Source of the DNA: Oceanicaulis sp. MMSF_3324 | GTDB lineage: Bacteria > Pseudomonadota > Alphaproteobacteria > Caulobacterales > Maricaulaceae | NCBI RefSeq assembly: GCF_030733545.1 | Contig: NZ_JASHIU010000001.1 | Span: 496,001 to 560,000 of the forward strand | Direction: 5' to 3' | Length of the DNA: 64,000 nt | In this document: positions 34,094-61,721 of the stretch, piece after piece | Layout: each line of letters starts with the position of its first letter | Position numbering within the stretch: position 1 is the stretch's first letter | Translations under genes and position numbers: made by a program | Notes under the pieces: model-generated | What the model was told of the DNA's origin: nothing | What the model saw: only the letters and a program-made list of their open reading frames with translations | Database searches by the model: none

Positions 34094-35395
34094 TCAGGCC
34101 GTTTCGTTCAGGGCGTTCAATTGCGTTTTGAGGGCGTCGAGATCCGCCGCGCAGGGTTCGAACCGGGTGGAGCGGTCCAGAACTTCGGCAAGCGCCGGAG
34201 ATGGCGCGATCGTCTGCCCGATCAGCGGCTCGACAATATCGGCGAACTTGTAGGGGTGCGCTGTCGCTGCGATCACCCAGGGGCGGGCGTGCAGATCAAA
34301 CTCGCGCATTCGCGCCAGCGCCTCGGCGCCGACCGCGGAGTGCGGGCACCAGACATAGCCCGAGCGCTCATAGTCCGCCTTGATCCGGGCGCGAATGGCG
34401 CGGTCTTCCACCAGCTCCACCGACAGGCGGGCCGCATCGTCGGGCAAGGCGTCCAGGCGTTCGAAATTGCTCGGCGCGCCCACATCCATGGCGTTGGCGA
34501 GGGTGGCGATCGAAGCGCGCGGCTCATACCGGCCCGAGATCGCCCAGTCCGCCAGCGTCCGGTTGGCGTTGGTGGCGAGCACGATCGGCCCCCAGGGCGC
34601 CCCCATATGACGGGCCCAGATGGCGGCGACGCCGTGGCCGAGATTGCCGGTGGGGATGATCAGTCCGGGTTTGACGCCGTTCTTCTCATAGGCCTGTCGT
34701 GCGGCCCAGGCCATGTAGGCGGCCTGAGGCAAAAGGCGGGCGATATTGATGGAATTGGCGCTGGTCAGATTGTGTGCATCGCTGAGCGCCCGGTCGGAAA
34801 AGGCCGCTTTGACCATGCGCTGACAGGCATCGAAATCGCCTTCGACTTCCAGCGCCGTCACCGGGGCGTTCCAGCAGGTGAGCTGGCGCTTCTGGAACCC
34901 GGATATCCGTCCCTTGGCATACAGGATCACCGCCCGCACGCCCTTGCGGCCTTCCGCGGCGCAGCCCACGGCCCCGCCGGTGTCGCCTGACGTGGCGGCC
35001 AGAACGGTGAAGGGATGCGCCGGATCGCCGAGCCGGTCCAGGCACCGCATCAGAAAGCGCGCGCCCACATCCTTGAACGCGCCGGTCGGGCCGTGAAACA
35101 GCTCAAGCGCGAACACGCCAGGCCGTCCGGGGAAGGGGTTCACCAGCGGCACGTCAAAGTCATAGGTTTCGTTGACCAGCTCGGGCAAGGCGCTTTCCAG
35201 AGCGTCTCCCTTGAAGAAAGGCTCGAACAGGGCGAGCGCGGTCTCCTCCAGGCTGGTTTGCGCCGTCAGTCCGCTCAGTTGGCCTTCGGGAAACGCATCG
35301 GGGATGAACAGGCCGCCATCCCCCGCGAGACCGATCCGGATGGCTTCGGAGATCGAGCCGGCGCTGGCGCTGTTACGGGTTGAGATCAGGCGCAT
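34094..35395 (-). CDS. thrC: Threonine synthase
   Basis: This PLP enzyme converts O-phosphohomoserine to threonine. The N-terminus MRLISTRNSASAGSISEAIRIGLAGDGGLFIP and the lysine motif LFHGPTGAFKDVGARF are typical of long-type threonine synthase, as is TSGDTGGAV. Length 433 is normal. The start overlaps the end of thrB by 10 bases, indicating coupling. Confidence 0.96.
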   Translation of the reverse strand: MRLISTRNSASAGSISEAIRIGLAGDGGLFIPDAFPEGQLSGLTAQTSLEETALALFEPFFKGDALESALPELVNETYDFDVPLVNPFPGRPGVFALELFHGPTGAFKDVGARFLMRCLDRLGDPAHPFTVLAATSGDTGGAVGCAAEGRKGVRAVILYAKGRISGFQKRQLTCWNAPVTALEVEGDFDACQRMVKAAFSDRALSDAHNLTSANSINIARLLPQAAYMAWAARQAYEKNGVKPGLIIPTGNLGHGVAAIWARHMGAPWGPIVLATNANRTLADWAISGRYEPRASIATLANAMDVGAPSNFERLDALPDDAARLSVELVEDRAIRARIKADYERSGYVWCPHSAVGAEALARMREFDLHARPWVIAATAHPYKFADIVEPLIGQTIAPSPALAEVLDRSTRFEPCAADLDALKTQLNALNETA

Positions 35396-36348
35396 GCTTC
35401 TGGCTCCTCGGCCGGTTCAAGGCGCACGCCGGTGCTGTTGAGCGATGCGCGATAGGCTTTGGCCTTGCGCCCTGCACGGTCAAAGGCGCGCGCCATGGCG
35501 GTCTCTACCGCTTCGGCGTCAAAATCGGCCGCCCAGGCGAAAATCGACGGCCCCGAGCCGGAAAACGAACAGCCCAGGGCGCCCGCTTCCAGCGCAGCAG
35601 CCTTCACGTCGCGCATTTCGGGCAGCAGAAAGGCGCGCTGGGGTTCGATCAGCACATCATCGAGGCCCGCCCGGATCAGTTCGAGATCCGATGTCGCACA
35701 GCCCAGGGTGAACGCTCCCAGACGCCGGGCGTGTTCCACCGCGGTCTGAAGGGGCGCGTCGGGCTGAAGCACGTCCCGGGCGGCCTGGGTTTCGGTTTTC
35801 GCATCGGGATGAAACAGGATGGCCGTGACGCCCTGGGGCGCGGGCATGGGTTTGACGATCGCTGGATCAAGCTGGGCGGCGATCACCAGCCCACCCAGAA
35901 GCGAGGCCATGACATTGTCCCAGGGGGGCGGATCGGCGCTGGCGCGCTCGCCTTCCAGCGCAAACGGCAAGAGCTCGGCGGTGGAAAACGGCTTGTCCAG
36001 GAGCGCGTTGACCGCTGCGGCGGCCGCCACGGCGCTGGCGGCGGACCCGCCCATGCCAGCGCTGATCGGCACGCCTTTCTTGACGTCCAGGCGCACGCCG
36101 AACGGCGCTTTCACCGCTTGCAGGACCGCCTGGGCGGCCCGTAACGCCGTGTTGCGCATGGGGTCTTCGGGCAGTTTGGACATCAGGCCGCTGACCTCGC
36201 CCAAACGCACGCCCTGTTGGCTCTCCCTATGGGCGGTCACTTCGTCCCGGGCGGCGTCAAACGCTTGTCCCAGGACATCAAATCCAACCCCGACATTGCC
36301 AATGCTGGCCGGGGCGCTGGCGCGCGCATGCATACTCATCAGACCCAC
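35386..36348 (-). CDS. thrB: Homoserine kinase (GHMP type)
   Basis: The enzyme phosphorylates homoserine. It belongs to the GHMP kinase family: ASIGNVGVGFDVLGQAFD near the start and the ATP-binding motif PISAGMGGSAASAVAAAAAVN, with the C-terminal GCSFSGSGPSIFAWA. Length 320 fits (E. coli ThrB is 310). The annotated start is a GTG at 36348 with AGAGGA five bases upstream; ATGs at 36339 and 36333 are alternatives and place the start closer to the family consensus. It is 12 bases after thrA. Confidence 0.95.
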   Translation of the reverse strand: MGLMSMHARASAPASIGNVGVGFDVLGQAFDAARDEVTAHRESQQGVRLGEVSGLMSKLPEDPMRNTALRAAQAVLQAVKAPFGVRLDVKKGVPISAGMGGSAASAVAAAAAVNALLDKPFSTAELLPFALEGERASADPPPWDNVMASLLGGLVIAAQLDPAIVKPMPAPQGVTAILFHPDAKTETQAARDVLQPDAPLQTAVEHARRLGAFTLGCATSDLELIRAGLDDVLIEPQRAFLLPEMRDVKAAALEAGALGCSFSGSGPSIFAWAADFDAEAVETAMARAFDRAGRKAKAYRASLNSTGVRLEPAEEPEACA

Positions 36349-36360
36349 TCGTCCTCTTGC

Positions 36361-38145
36361 TCAGGCGCTGCGCAACGCATCGTCCGCCCGCAAAGGGGGT
36401 CGAACGGACGATGCGTGCGCGGGCGCGGCGCCATCACACGCCCAAGCCCGACGGATGTCCATCATGTCACCGAAAACAGCCGCAGCCGTGGGCCAGCGTC
36501 CCGCGCCCTTGCCCTGCAGGCTGTGCACCTGACCATCCGACAAGGTCAGCAGGAACCGGTTCTCCTCATTGCGGGCGCCGGCCAGGGCGTGGTCCTGGGG
36601 CACGGCCCGGACCTGGACTTCAGCGTCCACAGCGCCGCCGGCGGTCAACTTGCAACAACCGATCTGCTTGAAGACCTCGCCGTTCATCAAGGCGTCCTGA
36701 GCCTGTTTGGCCGACACTTCGCTCAGCGATTGTTTGGCGATGCGTTTAGGCGGCAGGTCCACGCCAAACGCTTCCCGGATCAGAATGGACAGCTTGTCCG
36801 CGGCGTCATGCCCGTCCACATCGGCGCTGGGGTCGGCTTCGGCGAAGCCCATGCGCTGGGCTTCGGCGACCGCGTCCTCGAACGCTCGCCCCTTGCCCAG
36901 CTGGTCGAGGATGAAATTGCCGGTGCCGTTCATGACGCCTTCAACGGCGACCACGCCGTGTTCCTTAAGCTCGGACAGGCGCTCCAGAACCACGACGCCC
37001 CCGCCCACGGAGGCGGAATACATCAGATGCGCGCCGCCGGACTTCGCCGCCTGGTGCAGGGCTTCGTAATGCTTGGCGACGGCGGCCTTGTTGGCGGTGA
37101 CCACATGCTGGCCATTGCGCAGAACCGGCATCATGACCGAGGCCGGGCCGTCCGCTCCGCCCATCATCTCGACCACGAGATCGGGTTCGCCGGCCAGCGC
37201 GGCATGCGGATCAGAGGTGAACACCGCGCGGCGGTCATCGGCGCGGGAGCCCACATTGCGCACCAGCACGGGATTGAGCTCGAACAGTTCGGGATGGCTG
37301 AGCACATGATCCAGCACGCCCGACCCCACGGCGCCGCAGCCCAGAAGCGCGACCTTCATGGGGCCGCGATGGCGCAGGCGGCCGATGACGGCGGGGCCCG
37401 AAGCGATCCGGGTGGCTTCGCTGGCGCCCATGGCGGCGACCTCGACCACGAGATCGGCGGCCTTGGCGGCCTCGATGGCCTTGGGCTGGATCAGGCCGCG
37501 GCTGGCGTCCATGGCCTGGTCATAATCGAGCGCGTCATAGCGCTGGGCGTGCGGATCCTTGGCCGGGTCATCGGTGTAGACCCCGTCCACATCCTTGATC
37601 AGGCGCACCCGGTTGGCGCCCGCCTTCACGGCGAAAAAAACGGCGGTCAGATCAGTGCCGCCCCGGCCCAGCGTCGCGGCGCCATGCTCGGCATGACAGG
37701 CGGTGAAGCCCGGCAGTACGACCGCGTCCGCCTCCTCCAGCGAGCCGGCGAGCGCGTCGGCGTCAAACTCGCTGAGATTGGCGTCCATGGGATCGCCTTC
37801 CGCCATCAGGCCGATTTCATGCGGGTCGAGCACCTTCGCCTTCAGCCCGAGCCGTGACAGGGCGAGGCCCATCAGCGCGGCGGAGCGGAATTCGCCGAGC
37901 CGGGCGAGGCGGGCGGTGATGTCGGGGAAGGGGCCGCCGCCATTGGCGTCGGCCTGGGCCAGAAGCTGATCGGTTTCGCCTTTCAGGGCCGAAACGATGA
38001 CGATGGTTTTCTCCCCCGCCCGGACATGGCGGTAGATCTCTGCGCCGGCCGCGGCGTAGTCGGTCTCCGAGGTCAGCACCGAGCCGCCGAACTTGAGAAC
38101 GCAAAGGCCTTTCGGGGCGGAGGAAACGTTAAGCTGGGGATCCAT
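36361..38145 (-). CDS. thrA: Aspartokinase-homoserine dehydrogenase fusion lacking ACT domains (594 aa)
   Basis: Residues 14-255 are the aspartokinase domain: VLKFGGS (17-22), TLGRGGTDLTA (159-169) and IKDVDGVYTDDP (183-194). The homoserine dehydrogenase part starts at about residue 263 (MKVALLGCGAVGSGVLDH) and includes VMNGTGNFILDQL and FAEADPSADVDGHDAADK. E. coli ThrA (about 820 residues) has two ACT domains of roughly 200 residues between these parts; here the kinase runs straight into the dehydrogenase, so allosteric threonine inhibition by ACT is lost. I chose ATG 38145 (AAGGA at nine bases) over an upstream in-frame ATG at 38199 that would overlap the attenuator terminator. It is the first structural gene of the thr-ilvD operon. 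Confidence 0.94.
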   Translation of the reverse strand: MDPQLNVSSAPKGLCVLKFGGSVLTSETDYAAAGAEIYRHVRAGEKTIVIVSALKGETDQLLAQADANGGGPFPDITARLARLGEFRSAALMGLALSRLGLKAKVLDPHEIGLMAEGDPMDANLSEFDADALAGSLEEADAVVLPGFTACHAEHGAATLGRGGTDLTAVFFAVKAGANRVRLIKDVDGVYTDDPAKDPHAQRYDALDYDQAMDASRGLIQPKAIEAAKAADLVVEVAAMGASEATRIASGPAVIGRLRHRGPMKVALLGCGAVGSGVLDHVLSHPELFELNPVLVRNVGSRADDRRAVFTSDPHAALAGEPDLVVEMMGGADGPASVMMPVLRNGQHVVTANKAAVAKHYEALHQAAKSGGAHLMYSASVGGGVVVLERLSELKEHGVVAVEGVMNGTGNFILDQLGKGRAFEDAVAEAQRMGFAEADPSADVDGHDAADKLSILIREAFGVDLPPKRIAKQSLSEVSAKQAQDALMNGEVFKQIGCCKLTAGGAVDAEVQVRAVPQDHALAGARNEENRFLLTLSDGQVHSLQGKGAGRWPTAAAVFGDMMDIRRAWACDGAAPAHASSVRPPLRADDALRSA

Positions 38146-38200
38146 CGGATCAGTCCTTCTTGGTTCGTTTGGGTGGCGAGCCGGTTGGGTTCGAAGCATG

Positions 38201-57768: not shown

Positions 57769-58440
57769 ATGGAGATTGACTTTCTGGCCGGCCTGATCGC
57801 GGGACTGTCCACCAGCGCCCATTGCCTGGCCATGTGCGGCGGCATCGCCGCGGTGATCGCTCTGGGCGCGGGCGACAGGCAGACAGGCGTGGGGATCAGG
57901 GGGTCACGCCTGCTCGTGGCCCAGCTCGCGCGGATCTCATTGTATCTGATGCTGGGCGTAATCGCCGGCGCGATTGGCTGGGGCCTGCAGGACTCCCGTC
58001 CGCCCGCTGCCTTTCAGGATGTGGCGCGGTACCTGTCCGCCCTGGTGCTGGTCGCCGCCGGGTTTTCCGTCATGGAGATCCCGATTTTCGGCGGCGAGGT
58101 CGGGCGTCTGGGCGCGCGTCTGGCGGCCCCCATCACCAAACGCCTGCACCATCTGCATCGCTTCGGTCCGGTCGGGCTTGGTCTGGTCTGGGGGCTGATG
58201 CCCTGCGCCATGATCTATCTGATGACCTTCTATGCCGGGCTGACGGGCTCACCGGTCCAGGGCGGTCTCGTCATGGCCGGGTTCGGGCTTGGAACCGTGC
58301 CGGCGCTCCTGGCCGTGGGTCTGGGCGCGGGGGCGTTGCAAAGCCTCGCGCGTTCGCTCTGGCTTCGGCTTGTGGCTGGTGGAGCCCTGTTCGCATTGGC
58401 GATCTGGACGGTTCTGACCCCGGGCATGCACGCCCTGTAA
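57769..58440 (+). CDS. TauE/SafE-type membrane protein divergent from ccoN (223 aa)
   Basis: Six hydrophobic segments are visible. The family-specific N-terminal motif LIAGLSTSAHCLAMCGGIA starts at about residue 8, and a second GLVWGLMPCAMIYL motif carries a Cys, which is typical of the COG2836 group often placed beside cbb3 oxidase genes and suspected in metal or thiol handling for cofactor assembly. I choose ATG 57769; an ATG at 57739 in frame is an alternative, and neither has a strong ribosome binding site. Confidence 0.78.
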   Translation: MEIDFLAGLIAGLSTSAHCLAMCGGIAAVIALGAGDRQTGVGIRGSRLLVAQLARISLYLMLGVIAGAIGWGLQDSRPPAAFQDVARYLSALVLVAAGFSVMEIPIFGGEVGRLGARLAAPITKRLHHLHRFGPVGLGLVWGLMPCAMIYLMTFYAGLTGSPVQGGLVMAGFGLGTVPALLAVGLGAGALQSLARSLWLRLVAGGALFALAIWTVLTPGMHAL

Positions 58441-58448
58441 GAAAGCGG

Positions 58449-58477
58449 TTGACCACATATAAAGATATCCTTATATC
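58449..58477 (+). promoter_or_regulatory. Promoter of the met operon with overlapping palindromic operator
   Basis: TTGACC (58449-58454) and TATATC (58472-58477) are 17 bases apart. The sequence ATATAAAGATATCCTTATAT (58457-58476) is a palindrome with a single mismatched pair and covers the spacer and -10. The expected start point (about 58484) coincides with the first base of the SAM-II P1 stem. The palindrome resembles the ATAAAGATATCTTTAT-type operators that I associate with ArsR-family methionine regulators in alphaproteobacteria; that link is from memory. Confidence 0.7.
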
Positions 58478-58483
58478 TCACTA

Positions 58484-58535
58484 CGCGCCGATTTGAGCTT
58501 CAGCTTGCGGGCGCGGAACAAGTGCGGCTAAAGCG
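58484..58535 (+). ncRNA. SAM-II riboswitch (metA/metX-type aptamer)
   Basis: CGCGCC (58484-58489) pairs with GGCGCG (58510-58515) to form P1. The loop holds GATTTGAGC followed by GCTTG, which can pair with CAAGT (58519-58523) to form the pseudoknot, and GCGGCTAAAGCG carries the conserved GCUAAA. The length (about 52 nt), order and conserved GAUUU and GCUAAA elements match the SAM-II class of alphaproteobacteria. It precedes hom-metX-metB. High SAM should lower expression of methionine synthesis genes. Confidence 0.9.
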
Positions 58536-58654
58536 AAGCGTCGAGAATGTTTGGACCGACAGTCCCCCCGTCGCTTCTGGCGCTCTCGACGCACCGCACT
58601 CTCCTTGTTCCGCCCGGAGCGTTTTCACGCCGGCGCCTGTGAAACAAAGGAGAG
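58513..58654 (+). promoter_or_regulatory. Expression platform: switch helix versus Shine-Dalgarno sequestration
   Basis: GCGGAACAAG (58513-58522) is an exact complement of CTTGTTCCGC (58604-58613). It is continued by TGCGG (58523-58527) with CCGCA (58594-58598) and GCGTCGAGA (58538-58546) with TCTCGACGC (58584-58592). This helix uses the P1 3' arm and pseudoknot strand, so it excludes the aptamer. CTCTCCTT (58599-58606), partly within the same strand, is a perfect complement of AAGGAGAG (58647-58654), the hom ribosome binding site. I infer: without SAM the long helix forms and the ribosome site is free; with SAM the anti-Shine-Dalgarno strand blocks it. Confidence 0.75.
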
Positions 58655-58658
58655 CATC

Positions 58659-59636
58659 ATGACTTATCCGGCCGTGCTGGATCGCCCCGCCTTTTCACCT
58701 GCCGCCTCGCCGGTTCGCCCCATGCGCGCGATCATGCTGGGCTGCGGCGTGGTTGGCGGAGGCGTGATCGAGCGTCTGCCGGAAGGGATTGAATTGCTGG
58801 GCATTCTCACCCGTACGCCGCGCCCCGAGGGCGTGTCGGGCTATCCGGTCTTCACCGATCCTGACGCGGTGTTCGCGCTCAAGCCCGAACTGGTCATCGA
58901 GGCATTGCCGGGCGGCGCCGTGGCCGAAGCGCTGGTCGAACGCGCCGTGCGTGAAGGCTGCCATATCGTGACCGCCAACAAGGATGTGGCCGCACGCCGG
59001 CCCGATCTGGTCGCCGAGACCCAGGCGGCCGGACGCACTTTTGCCTGTTCCTCCGCAGTGGCGGGCGGCGCGCCCGTACTTGAAACCGTGGCGCGCCTGC
59101 GGGACAGCGGCGCCAAGGTTGGCCGGGTTCGCGGCGTGCTGAACGGCACGTCCAATTTCGTGCTCGACCGGTTGTCCAATGGCCGCAGCCTCGAGTCGTC
59201 GGTCAAGGAAGCGCAGGATGCCGGGTTCGCCGAAGCCGATCCCAGCGCGGATCTGGATGGTCTGGATGCAGCCAACAAGCTGGCGCTCATCGCGCGCGAA
59301 GCCTGGGGCGTGGACCTGGATCCGGCGTCCATCCCGACCGCGTCGATCCGGGATCTGCCCGCGCATGTGCTGTATGCGGCGCGCCAGGATGGTCGTCGCA
59401 TTCGCCAGGTCGGCTGTCTGACCCGGTCGGTGTCCGGCGTGCGCGCCCAGGTGCGTCTGGAGGCCTTGCCGCTCAATGATCCGCTGTCGCGGGCGCGGGC
59501 GGAAGGCAATGTCGTCGTGCTCCTGCCCGAACGCGGCGCCGAAGTCATCGTGGCGGGCAAGGGCGCTGGCCGCCTGCCCACGGCCGGCAGCCTGATCGGT
59601 GATCTCAACCGCCTCATCAAGGCGCAGCGCTCATGA
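58659..59636 (+). CDS. hom: Homoserine dehydrogenase without ACT domain, methionine operon (325 aa)
   Basis: The start at 58659 has AAAGGAGAG at four bases' spacing. The NAD(P) motif IMLGCGVVGGGVIERL is followed by VTANKDVAARRPDL, GVLNGTSNFVLDRL and FAEADPSADLDGLDAANKLALIA, all signatures of homoserine dehydrogenase. Most bacterial stand-alone Hom proteins have about 430 residues with a C-terminal ACT domain; here the protein ends at residue 325 (LNRLIKAQRS). It is therefore probably not inhibited by threonine, fitting a methionine-dedicated isozyme controlled by the SAM-II element. The stop overlaps metX by four bases. Confidence 0.93.
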   Translation: MTYPAVLDRPAFSPAASPVRPMRAIMLGCGVVGGGVIERLPEGIELLGILTRTPRPEGVSGYPVFTDPDAVFALKPELVIEALPGGAVAEALVERAVREGCHIVTANKDVAARRPDLVAETQAAGRTFACSSAVAGGAPVLETVARLRDSGAKVGRVRGVLNGTSNFVLDRLSNGRSLESSVKEAQDAGFAEADPSADLDGLDAANKLALIAREAWGVDLDPASIPTASIRDLPAHVLYAARQDGRRIRQVGCLTRSVSGVRAQVRLEALPLNDPLSRARAEGNVVVLLPERGAEVIVAGKGAGRLPTAGSLIGDLNRLIKAQRS

Positions 59637-60583
59637 CCGCGACGGCCTCCTCCACAGCCGAGCGATGTCGCACGGCGCAATGGCGCGTGCAGGAATTCAG
59701 CTGCGGCTTTGAACGCCCCCATGGCGGGGGCTGGTCGGATGTGCGCGGTCGGGTGGTCGGTCCCGATGACGGGGCCGTCACCATTGTGCTGGGCGGCATT
59801 TCCGCGGACCGGCGCCTGGTCGAGGATGAAGACGGGCCGGGCTGGTGGTCAGGCGTGGCGGAACCGGGCGGGGCTCTGGACCCGACCCGCCGCCGTCTGG
59901 TCTCGATGGATTATCTCGATGACGCCGCCGAGCCTTTTCCCACCGTGGACGATCAGGCTGCTGCGGTTCTGATGCTGGCGGATACGGCGGGAATTGATCG
60001 CTTTGCGCTGGTCGGCGCCAGCTATGGCGGATCGGTGGGGTTGAGCCTGGCCGCCATGGCGCCCGACCGGGTGAGCCGACTTGATCTGTTGTGCGCCAGT
60101 GCAGGCGTGCATCCCATGACCCAGGGCTTGCGGGCGATCCAGCGCGAAATTCTCAAACTGGCTCTGGATGCGGGCCAGGGCGCGCGCGGCGTGGACATCG
60201 CCCGGCGCCTCGCCATGACGACCTATCGCACGCCCGAAGAGTTCGCTCGCCGCTTCGGCCCGGATGGCGAGCCGGGCGGGGTGGAGGCCTATCTGGCGGC
60301 GCGGGGCGCGGACTATGCCCGGACGGTGACGGCGGAACGCTTCCTGTCGCGCCTGGCGTCCATGGAGGCGGCGGCGCCGGACCTGTCCCGGATCACCTGC
60401 CCGGTGAACCTTTTGGCGTTCACGTCTGATGCGCTGGTGCCGCTGGACGAGATCGAGGCGACCCGCAAGGCGCTGACGGCGTGCGACACCCGGCTGACGG
60501 TGCATGACACGCCTTTCGGCCATGATGGCTTCCTGAAGGAGACCGCGCTCGTGAACGCCTTCCTGGAGGGACGGCATGACTGA
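59633..60583 (+). CDS. metX: Homoserine O-acyltransferase, MetX type (316 aa)
   Basis: This alpha/beta hydrolase fold enzyme transfers an acetyl or succinyl group to homoserine. The nucleophile elbow is GASYGGSVGLSLAAM and the C-terminal histidine motif FGHDGFLKE matches MetX (usual GHDxFL). Acyl-donor preference cannot be read. Length 316 is short for MetX (about 340-400), mainly at the N-terminus. It is coupled to hom (four-base overlap) and metB (eight-base overlap). Confidence 0.9.
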   Translation: MTATASSTAERCRTAQWRVQEFSCGFERPHGGGWSDVRGRVVGPDDGAVTIVLGGISADRRLVEDEDGPGWWSGVAEPGGALDPTRRRLVSMDYLDDAAEPFPTVDDQAAAVLMLADTAGIDRFALVGASYGGSVGLSLAAMAPDRVSRLDLLCASAGVHPMTQGLRAIQREILKLALDAGQGARGVDIARRLAMTTYRTPEEFARRFGPDGEPGGVEAYLAARGADYARTVTAERFLSRLASMEAAAPDLSRITCPVNLLAFTSDALVPLDEIEATRKALTACDTRLTVHDTPFGHDGFLKETALVNAFLEGRHD

Positions 60584-61721
60584 GTTTCGCACGCGGGCGG
60601 TTCGCGCCGGGATCGATTGTGATCCGGGCCATGGCGCCGTTGTCGCGCCGGTCCAGATTTCCAGCGCCTATCGGCGGGCCGATCCGGCCCAGCCCGGCGC
60701 GTTCGATTATGCCCGTACTGGCCAACCCGGTCGGGCTGAACTGGCCACCGCCCTTGCAGCGTTGGAAGGGGCCTCCGGCGCGGTGGTGGCCAGTTCGGGA
60801 ATGGCGGCGATTGATCTGGTGCTCAATCTCCTGCCCAATGGGGCGCGGTTGATCTGCGCCCATGATTGCTATGGCGGGACGCGGCGCCTGATGGATGCGC
60901 GCAGCCAGCAGCGCGGCTTCGACCTTGTCTATGTGGATTGCACCGATGATGCGGCGCTCGAAGCGGCGCTGTGGGACGGCGCCGATCTCGTCTTTCTGGA
61001 AACCCCGTCCAATCCGCGCCTGCGCCTGACCGATCTTCGCACGGCTTGTGTGCGGGCCAAGGCGGCGGGGGCGATCACCGTGGTGGACAATACGGTTCTG
61101 TCCCCCGCGCTTCAGCGTCCGATCGAGCTGGGCGCGGATCTGGTGGTCAGCTCGCTGACCAAGATCATCAACGGCCATTCGGACATGGTGGGCGGCGTGG
61201 TGTGTGCGGCGGACCCGGATCATGTGGAGCAACTGGGCTGGTGGGCCAATGCCGCAGGGGCTGTGGGCGGCGCGTTTGACGCCTTTCTCGTCATGCGTGG
61301 CCTGCGCACCCTGCCGGTTCGGGCGAAGGCGCAATCTGAAAGCGCGCTCGACATCGCAAAACGCCTCGCCGCCCACCCCAAGGTGGCGCGCGTGGACTAT
61401 CCCGGCCTTGAAGATCATCCCGGTCACGCCATCGCCAAGGCCCAGCAGGACGGCTTCGGCCCGCTTATGAGCCTAGAGCTGAAGGGCGGGGCGGAGGCGG
61501 CGCGCCGGTTCGTGCTCTCGCTTGAACTGTTCATCCTGGCCCAGTCGCTGGGCGGGGTGGAAAGTCTGTGCGCCATTCCCGCCACCATGACCCATGCCGC
61601 CATGACGCCCGAGGCGCGCGAAGAGGCGGGTGTTGCCGATGGACTGGTGCGTCTGTCGGTTGGTCTCGAGGCGGCGGATGACCTCTGGGCCGATCTCGAA
61701 CAGGCGCTGGACGGGCTTTAG
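60576..61721 (+). CDS. metB: Cystathionine gamma-synthase / O-acylhomoserine sulfhydrylase type PLP enzyme (381 aa)
   Basis: This is a Cys/Met metabolism PLP protein. VVSSLTKIINGHSDMVGGVV holds the PLP lysine, and FLETPSNPRLRLTDL, VVDNTVLSPALQRPIELGADL and ESLCAIPATMTHAAM are family motifs. Length 381 is typical. Whether it uses cysteine (MetB) or sulfide (MetZ/MetY) is not decidable by eye; its place beside metX supports either. It is the last gene of the met operon. Confidence 0.88.
   Translation: MTEFRTRAVRAGIDCDPGHGAVVAPVQISSAYRRADPAQPGAFDYARTGQPGRAELATALAALEGASGAVVASSGMAAIDLVLNLLPNGARLICAHDCYGGTRRLMDARSQQRGFDLVYVDCTDDAALEAALWDGADLVFLETPSNPRLRLTDLRTACVRAKAAGAITVVDNTVLSPALQRPIELGADLVVSSLTKIINGHSDMVGGVVCAADPDHVEQLGWWANAAGAVGGAFDAFLVMRGLRTLPVRAKAQSESALDIAKRLAAHPKVARVDYPGLEDHPGHAIAKAQQDGFGPLMSLELKGGAEAARRFVLSLELFILAQSLGGVESLCAIPATMTHAAMTPEAREEAGVADGLVRLSVGLEAADDLWADLEQALDGL

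What the first reader, a model, noticed from the sequence alone, without database searches (positions are those of the whole stretch)
58484..58661. SAM-II riboswitch with a readable two-state switch acting on the hom start site
The aptamer is followed by 24 base pairs of long-range complementarity (58513-58546 with 58584-58613), which uses the 3' arm of P1 and the pseudoknot strand and so cannot coexist with the folded aptamer. Part of the same 3' strand (58599-58606) is a perfect eight-base complement of the hom Shine-Dalgarno (58647-58654). This gives a full ON/OFF model: unliganded RNA frees the ribosome site, liganded RNA sequesters it. SAM-II sensors are known; a complete switch with this separate anti-anti-SD helix in front of a homoserine dehydrogenase is, as far as I know, not described.
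Basis: partly seen in the sequence, partly recalled or inferred. Interest (0 to 1): 0.82.

Follow-up and report, generated by a model that had tools for sequence, protein, structure and literature searches.

The report
SAM-II riboswitch gating hom translation
A marine bacterium's methionine operon carries a known type of RNA sensor for S-adenosylmethionine, and the RNA after it looks like a conserved two-way latch that hides or frees the ribosome-binding site, a design we did not find described for this sensor in the papers we could search.

Summary
A SAM-II (Rfam SAM_alpha) aptamer lies at 58475-58551, at 24.8 bits, under the curated cut-off of 36, before a hom-metX-metB-like operon. The long-range helix and the 8-base anti-Shine-Dalgarno are where stated.

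In 39 homologous leaders from five genera, forcing the aptamer makes the ribosome site harder to open: mean coupling 3.7 kcal/mol against 0.4 with shuffled linkers, above the shuffle mean in 39 of 39. Aptamer strand, downstream strand and ribosome site co-vary.

Corrections: 7 of the 24 pairs are compatible with the aptamer; a second anti-aptamer strand (58631-58636) was missed; by predicted energies the unbound fold wins, so control would have to be kinetic; in 23 of 39 leaders little of the anti-SD strand is predicted to move.

SAM-II plus SahR control of hom-metXC in Oceanicaulis is already in print (PMC4239095, passages). Apparently undescribed are the translational latch, its conservation, and a differently aimed strand in another family. 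A new variant of a known kind.

The parts
58449..58477 (+). Promoter-like TTGACC (58449-58454), 17-nt spacer, TATATC (58472-58477)
   Evidence: Read from the sequence and the alignment of 39 upstream regions; the consensus scan found no promoter; inference
58457..58476 (.). SahR-like palindrome inside the promoter-like region
   Evidence: Pattern with up to 2 mismatches found at 3 places in the genome: here, at the start of metF-metH and at the start of metK, genes named by eye from translations; conserved in 39 leaders
58475..58551 (+). SAM-II (RF00521, SAM_alpha) aptamer match
   Evidence: 24.8 bits, E 0.00097, gathering score 36
58484..58489 (+). P1 5' arm
   Evidence: P1 pairs in 99.0% of cells, nearly invariant
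58497..58501 (+). P2 pseudoknot 5' strand
   Evidence: Pairs with 58535-58539; 92.9% of cells paired, 4 of 5 pairs with changes on both sides
58510..58515 (+). P1 3' arm
58513..58527 (+). Aptamer strand captured in the unbound fold (last 3 nt of P1 plus GGAACAAGTGCG-type segment)
   Evidence: Pairs with 58594-58613; co-varies with the downstream strand
58535..58539 (+). P2 pseudoknot 3' strand
58540..58590 (+). Local hairpin (stem 58540-58546/58584-58590) kept in both predicted folds
58594..58613 (+). Swing strand: pairs with the aptamer strand (unbound) or, in part, with the ribosome site (bound)
58599..58606 (+). Anti-Shine-Dalgarno, exact complement of 58647-58654
58631..58636 (+). Second anti-aptamer strand CGGCGC, complementary to 58485-58490 (P1 5' arm)
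   Evidence: Unconstrained fold; in the window itself 65 of 300 shuffles do as well; over 39 leaders below shuffle mean in 31, at the 5% level in 10
58647..58654 (+). Shine-Dalgarno of hom
58659..59636 (+). hom, homoserine dehydrogenase; Pfam shows the NAD-binding and catalytic domains only
59633..60583 (+). metX-like homoserine O-acyltransferase (alpha/beta hydrolase)
   Evidence: best NCBIfam match PRK08775, 238 bits, cut-off 296
60576..61721 (+). metB-like cystathionine gamma-synthase family enzyme
   Evidence: best match TIGR02080, 473 bits, cut-off 504.55

Best explanation
A SAM-II riboswitch controls translation of hom, the first gene of a methionine operon, through a three-strand latch. 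The aptamer is transcribed first. If SAM is present it holds P1 and the P2 pseudoknot; the later swing strand (58594-58613) cannot reach its aptamer partner and pairs with the Shine-Dalgarno and the bases before it: OFF. If SAM is absent, the swing strand invades P1 and takes 58513-58527, the strand 58631-58636 takes the P1 5' arm, and the ribosome site is easier to open: ON. Shown here by computation: the aptamer match, the alternative pairings, their coupling and their co-variation. Inferred: SAM binding, the order of folding, the effect on translation, and kinetic rather than equilibrium control. A SahR-like operator in the promoter would add control by SAH at transcription.
For: RF00521 match. 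P2: 18 cells with double changes and covariation score 0.258, each reached by 0 of 500 shuffles; slid controls score at most 0.086. All 39 fetched leaders of this hom type carry the core. Coupling 3.72 against 0.42 kcal/mol in shuffles, above the shuffle mean in 39 of 39, 0 of 60 shuffled group means as high, also in each of five genera taken alone. Wider ribosome-site definition: 4.66 against 0.57, 38 of 39; a decoy window in mid-linker: mean -1.67, positive in 11 of 39. Permuting aptamer strands among leaders: 0 of 20000 as good; one leader per distinct strand: 0 of 2000 permutations in each of 50 draws. Permuting ribosome sites: own 3.72, permuted mean 1.76, 0 of 20000 as high. No terminator-like site in 58350-58750.
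Against: Score below Rfam's cut-off. P1 is nearly invariant, so its covariation is untested in these leaders; the bare number of P2 pairs with double changes (4) is reached by 145 of 500 shuffles and by one slid control. In only 16 of 39 leaders does more than 30% of the strand that pairs with the ribosome site in the bound fold pair with the aptamer in the free fold; the SD window is more open in the free fold in 35 of 39, often by very little, and less open in 4 (L025, L055, L056, L058). Forcing the aptamer costs 19 kcal/mol in the full leader, and already 8 to 16 before the swing strand is made, more than P2 (about -5) and SAM can easily repay; the constraint bars all aptamer bases from other pairs and ignores triples, so this is an upper bound. 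A foreign aptamer strand fits the linker better than the own one in 23 of 39; in 6 of 39 the mean foreign ribosome site couples at least as well. The coupling test is also positive in f2 metA leaders whose linkers lack this complementarity (1.80 against 0.24, 23 of 30). Leaders are related, so permutation figures are not probabilities.
Confidence: 0.77

Rival explanations
1. Transcription attenuation: SAM-bound aptamer lets a terminator form, as in many SAM-II leaders (intrinsic), or hidden translation start leads to Rho-dependent termination.
For: Terminators are named as the most frequent SAM-II platform in alpha- and beta-Proteobacteria (passages of PMC2258182; PMC1273637). A run of four T (58622-58625) follows GAGCG in the window. 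Rho coupling cannot be excluded from sequence.
Against: 0 terminator-like sites at 58350-58750; no such T run at that place in the nearest relative L002; coupling is specific to the ribosome site, not to a mid-linker window.
Confidence: 0.12
2. Direct occlusion or no expression platform: the aptamer acts alone (its P2 covers a ribosome site), and the downstream complementarity is incidental.
For: Direct occlusion is the described translational mode of SAM-II (PMC10907184, passages; PMC9373788, section).
Against: The hom start is about 120 nt after P2; co-variation and coupling over 39 leaders.
Confidence: 0.07
3. The leader pairings are mainly RNA-stability or folding elements; regulation rests on the SahR-like operator alone and the aptamer is decayed.
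For: SahR-like operator is conserved and the aptamer is below the Rfam cut-off; SAM-II effects on mRNA stability are reported in S. meliloti (abstract of PMC9373788).
Against: The aptamer core is invariant or nearly so across 39 leaders while linkers diverge; P2 co-varies.
Confidence: 0.04

Closest known systems
SAM-II (SAM_alpha, RF00521) riboswitch of Oceanicaulis alexandrii hom-metXC with SahR (PMC4239095, passages seen)
   Same: Same genus, same operon type, same aptamer class, same SahR co-regulation
   Different: The passages seen do not say how the riboswitch acts on the ribosome site; I did not read the whole text
Sargasso Sea metX and S. meliloti metA SAM-II (PMC10907184 passages, PMC9373788 abstract and sections 3 and 5)
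   Same: SAM-II aptamer acting on translation
   Different: There the SD lies inside P2 and is covered directly; here it lies about 110 nt downstream and is covered by a separate strand
SAM-II leaders with terminators, e.g. S. meliloti metZ (PMC9373788 section 5; PMC1273637 passages)
   Same: SAM binding changes the fold of a downstream expression platform
   Different: Terminator there; none found here, the predicted output is ribosome access
Generic sequestor/antisequestor translational riboswitches (PMC2258182, passages seen)
   Same: Same switching logic
   Different: In the passages seen it is stated for riboswitches in general, not shown for SAM-II

Membership tests
SAM-II riboswitch class | P1 stem with the conserved GATTTG, CTTGC and GCTAAA segments in register with RF00521 | tested here: met
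   Full-length alignment 1-79/79; invariant in 39 leaders but for one with GATTTA
SAM-II riboswitch class | P2 pseudoknot supported by covariation | tested here: met
   92.9% of cells paired, covariation score above all 500 shuffles and all slid controls; the count of 4 doubly changed pairs alone is not distinctive, 145 of 500
SAM-II riboswitch class | Location before methionine/SAM genes | tested here: met
   hom-metX-metB-like operon
SAM-II riboswitch class | Binds SAM, rejects SAH | not testable with these tools
   Needs in-line probing or ITC
Rfam RF00521 listing (database cut-off, not a biological feature) | Score of 36 bits or more | tested here: not met
   24.8 bits; same-family relatives score up to 32.2, other families of the order up to 84.2
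Translational sequestor/antisequestor platform | Two exclusive folds, one hiding the ribosome site | tested here: met
   (thermodynamic prediction only; partial in 23 of 39 leaders)
Translational sequestor/antisequestor platform | Ligand-dependent change of translation | not testable with these tools
   Needs a reporter assay
Intrinsic terminator platform | GC-rich hairpin followed by a T run before the gene | tested here: not met
   0 found in 58350-58750; a run of four T exists at 58622-58625
SahR regulon | 20-bp palindromic operator before methionine-cycle genes | tested here: met
   3 sites in the genome at up to 2 mismatches: hom, metF-metH, metK
SahR regulon | A SahR protein in the genome that binds the site | not tested
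   The gene was not looked for

The most novel reading that the evidence does not exclude
SAM-II aptamers in this bacterial order have acquired downstream 'anti-aptamer' strands at least twice, aimed at different parts of the same aptamer: families f1 and f5 at the P1 3' arm plus the GGAACAAG segment, family f4 at the ligand-core CTTGCGGGC; in f1 the ribosome site imitates the aptamer strand so that one swing strand serves both. If so, one tiny pseudoknot aptamer supports several interchangeable translational latches.
Probability: 0.5. Interest if true: 0.62.

Novelty: new variant of a known kind. Interest (0 to 1): 0.5.

Why it matters
SAM-II is a model for direct covering of the ribosome site by a pseudoknot, and is otherwise linked with terminators. 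A conserved latch at a distance would add a third platform that can be tested. With 39 leaders it also gives a natural series for studying how expression platforms evolve around a fixed aptamer, in an operon that also carries a SahR-like operator (SAH at transcription, SAM at translation, if both act as inferred).

Tried and rejected
Terminator reading: set aside for the window after the scan and inspection; Rho not excluded. Direct occlusion: set aside because of distance. The Rfam family search of the own genome returned nothing at E <= 0.001 and its 14 control genomes were empty too, so I used a pattern search (one site in the genome) and the E-value scan. In the order-wide search stricter filters applied and the own genome again gave no match, so its counts are lower bounds.

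A clean negative control was sought in the f2 metA leaders. For strand complementarity it is clean (A3 and core each reach the 5% level in 1 of 30). For the coupling test it is not: 1.80 against 0.24, above shuffle mean in 23 of 30, 12 in the top 5%, so those leaders may use another pairing, and coupling alone does not single out the hom leaders.

Coupling in other groups was underpowered. Given: 15 loci as 'f4 small ORF' (13 f4 and 2 atypical f2), 4 f4 metZ loci, 3 of 7 f5, 4 of 5 f1 non-hom; 3 of 20 f4 loci were not given. My start-codon rule found no start in 10 of 15, 3 of 4 and 1 of 4. Results: 'f4 small ORF' 3.86 against -0.23 (4 of 5 above shuffle mean), f4 metZ 1.20 against 1.19 (n 1), f5 6.63 against -0.08 (3 of 3; one of them -0.0), f1 non-hom 2.51 against 0.38 (2 of 3). 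L099 and L126 had no core match and were dropped.

The second anti-aptamer strand is weaker than the first: 10 of 39 leaders at the 5% level against 19 of 39. Ribosome-site/linker complementarity alone is weak (9 of 39 at the 5% level). In one search, 4 of 7 f5 leaders were used, chosen because their P1 3' flank resembles that of f1; this favours the result.

Full report
What is there. The window comes from an Oceanicaulis-like bacterium: the hom protein matches a named record, Oceanicaulis sp. HTCC2633, at 93%. At 58475-58551 the SAM-II model RF00521 matches over its full length with 24.8 bits, E 0.00097, below the curated cut-off of 36, which is why the standard scan shows nothing. Downstream lie hom (58659-59636), a metX-like acyltransferase (59633-60583) and a metB-like enzyme (60576-61721), with overlapping ends.

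The 24-pair helix (58513-58546 with 58584-58613) and the exact anti-SD octamer (58599-58606 with 58647-58654) are present. Seven of the pairs (58540-58546/58584-58590) form a local hairpin that stays in the fold with the aptamer constrained, so the main switch helix is 58513-58527/58594-58613.

Comparative set. A search of 137 genomes of the family with the hom protein matched in 108. I fetched 39 places in 38 genomes: every place at 46% identity or more, and one at 44% with an open frame of 410 aa (G025). The remaining, lower-scoring places were judged from their identity and mostly longer open frames to be other hom genes and were not fetched. All 39 carry the SAM-II core (38 by the first pattern, L019 with GATTTA). 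The aptamer is nearly invariant. P2 co-varies: covariation score 0.258 and 18 doubly changed cells, each reached by 0 of 500 shuffles, though 4 pairs with double changes are reached by 145 of 500. P1 hardly varies.

Switch test. For each leader I computed the free energy needed to open the SD window (-15 to -5) with the RNA unconstrained and with the aptamer forced (P1 paired, other aptamer bases unavailable). The difference measures how far a folded aptamer closes the ribosome site. Mean 3.72 kcal/mol; with dinucleotide-shuffled linkers 0.42, standard deviation of the group mean 0.27; 39 of 39 above their own shuffle mean. In the five genera separately (15, 7, 2, 3 and 12 leaders), 0 of 60 shuffled group means reach the real mean. 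A wider ribosome-site definition agrees (4.66 against 0.57, 38 of 39), and a mid-linker decoy window gives -1.67, positive in 11 of 39. For the window alone the coupling is 5.99, reached by 8 of 1000 shuffles.

Co-variation. The aptamer strand exists in 14 versions among the 39 leaders. A leader's own strand fits its own linker better than the mean foreign strand in 36 of 39, is best or tied-best in 16 of 39, and no permutation of 20000 does as well. With 48 leaders and 18 versions, one leader per version, none of 2000 permutations in any of 50 draws does as well (4 of 7 f5 leaders were chosen, see Tried and rejected). Examples: GGAAC with GTTCC, GGAAG with CTTCC, CAGGAC with GTCCTG, GAAATAAAT with ATTTATTTC. 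With a foreign ribosome site the coupling falls to 1.71 on average (own better than mean foreign in 33 of 39); permuted mean 1.76, 0 of 20000 permutations as high as 3.72. Relatedness inflates such figures.

Limits. Over 39 leaders the SD window is unpaired at 0.36 in the free and 0.28 in the bound fold, and only in 16 does more than 30% of the bound-state anti-SD strand move to the aptamer in the free state. The aptamer fold costs 8 to 16 kcal/mol before the swing strand is made (3' ends 58541-58595), 24 at 58613, 26 at 58637-58649 and 19 in the full leader. With P2 at about -5 and SAM binding, only a co-transcriptional choice seems able to give OFF, and even the early cost is sizeable; the constraint forbids all other aptamer pairs and ignores triples. 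This is inference; pseudoknots and kinetics were not simulated.

Other families. A search of 299 genomes of the order with RF00521 matched in 96, 62 over the cut-off. From 36 stretches that I chose from its list (34 with a core match) plus 30 f2 loci returned with it, strand complementarity was tested in six groups. f1 non-hom and f5 leaders favour the same aptamer strand as the window (5 of 5 and 7 of 7 below shuffle mean; 4 and 3 at the 5% level). f4 leaders favour the core CTTGCGGGC (17 of 20 below; 14 of 20 at the 5% level), as do two atypical f2 loci (2 of 2). The 30 f2 metA leaders favour neither (1 of 30 each). The coupling test in these groups was small and mixed, and positive in f2.

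Transcription layer. A palindrome at 58457-58476 sits inside a promoter-like TTGACC-17-TATATC. The pattern, at up to 2 mismatches, occurs at two other places in the genome, at the starts of metF-metH and of metK, genes that I named by eye from their translations, and is conserved in the 39 leaders. That this is the SahR site is an inference from the published regulon; the SahR gene was not looked for. Dual SAM_alpha and SahR control of hom-metXC in O. alexandrii was published in 2014 (PMC4239095, passages).

Prior work. SAM-II platforms in what I saw: terminators (passages of PMC1273637 and PMC2258182; sections of PMC9373788) and direct covering of the SD by P2 (passages of PMC10907184; sections of PMC9373788). 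PMC2258182 describes sequestor/antisequestor logic for riboswitches in general; its per-class counts are in a figure I could not see, so some SAM-II leaders may have been so classed. In searches of the open library I saw no description of such a platform for SAM-II; I opened 5 of the listed papers, in part, and subscription papers are not held.

Verdict. Known sensor, known location, apparently undescribed but conserved translational latch: new variant of a known kind.

Noticed in passing
58450-58625 (-): Rfam 'sRNA' family RF02424 (Bp2_287, Burkholderia) matches the minus strand here, 21.6 bits (cut-off 70), and parts of its consensus read as the reverse complement of a SAM-II aptamer; the family may be an antisense-oriented SAM-II leader.
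   Followed up: no
36361-38199 (-): A second homoserine dehydrogenase is fused to an aspartokinase-like N-terminus and followed by a homoserine-kinase-like gene (35386-36348), so the window holds what look like separate threonine-branch and methionine-branch hom genes (the fusion and the kinase were read by eye).
   Followed up: partly
L021 and L062 (G010): One genome carries two short-type hom genes, each with its own SAM-II leader.
   Followed up: no
L101:823-1152 (-) and similar f4 loci: In family f4 a small ORF of about 110 aa (motif LPGLELQH) lies between the SAM-II leader and a metX-like gene; its function is unknown to me.
   Followed up: partly
L055-L058 (g13) leaders: These leaders have a strand of the CAAATCGGCG type aimed at the P1 5' arm and GATTTG and no clear Shine-Dalgarno; the SD window is not more open in the free fold although the coupling energy is positive, 0.25 to 5.14.
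   Followed up: partly
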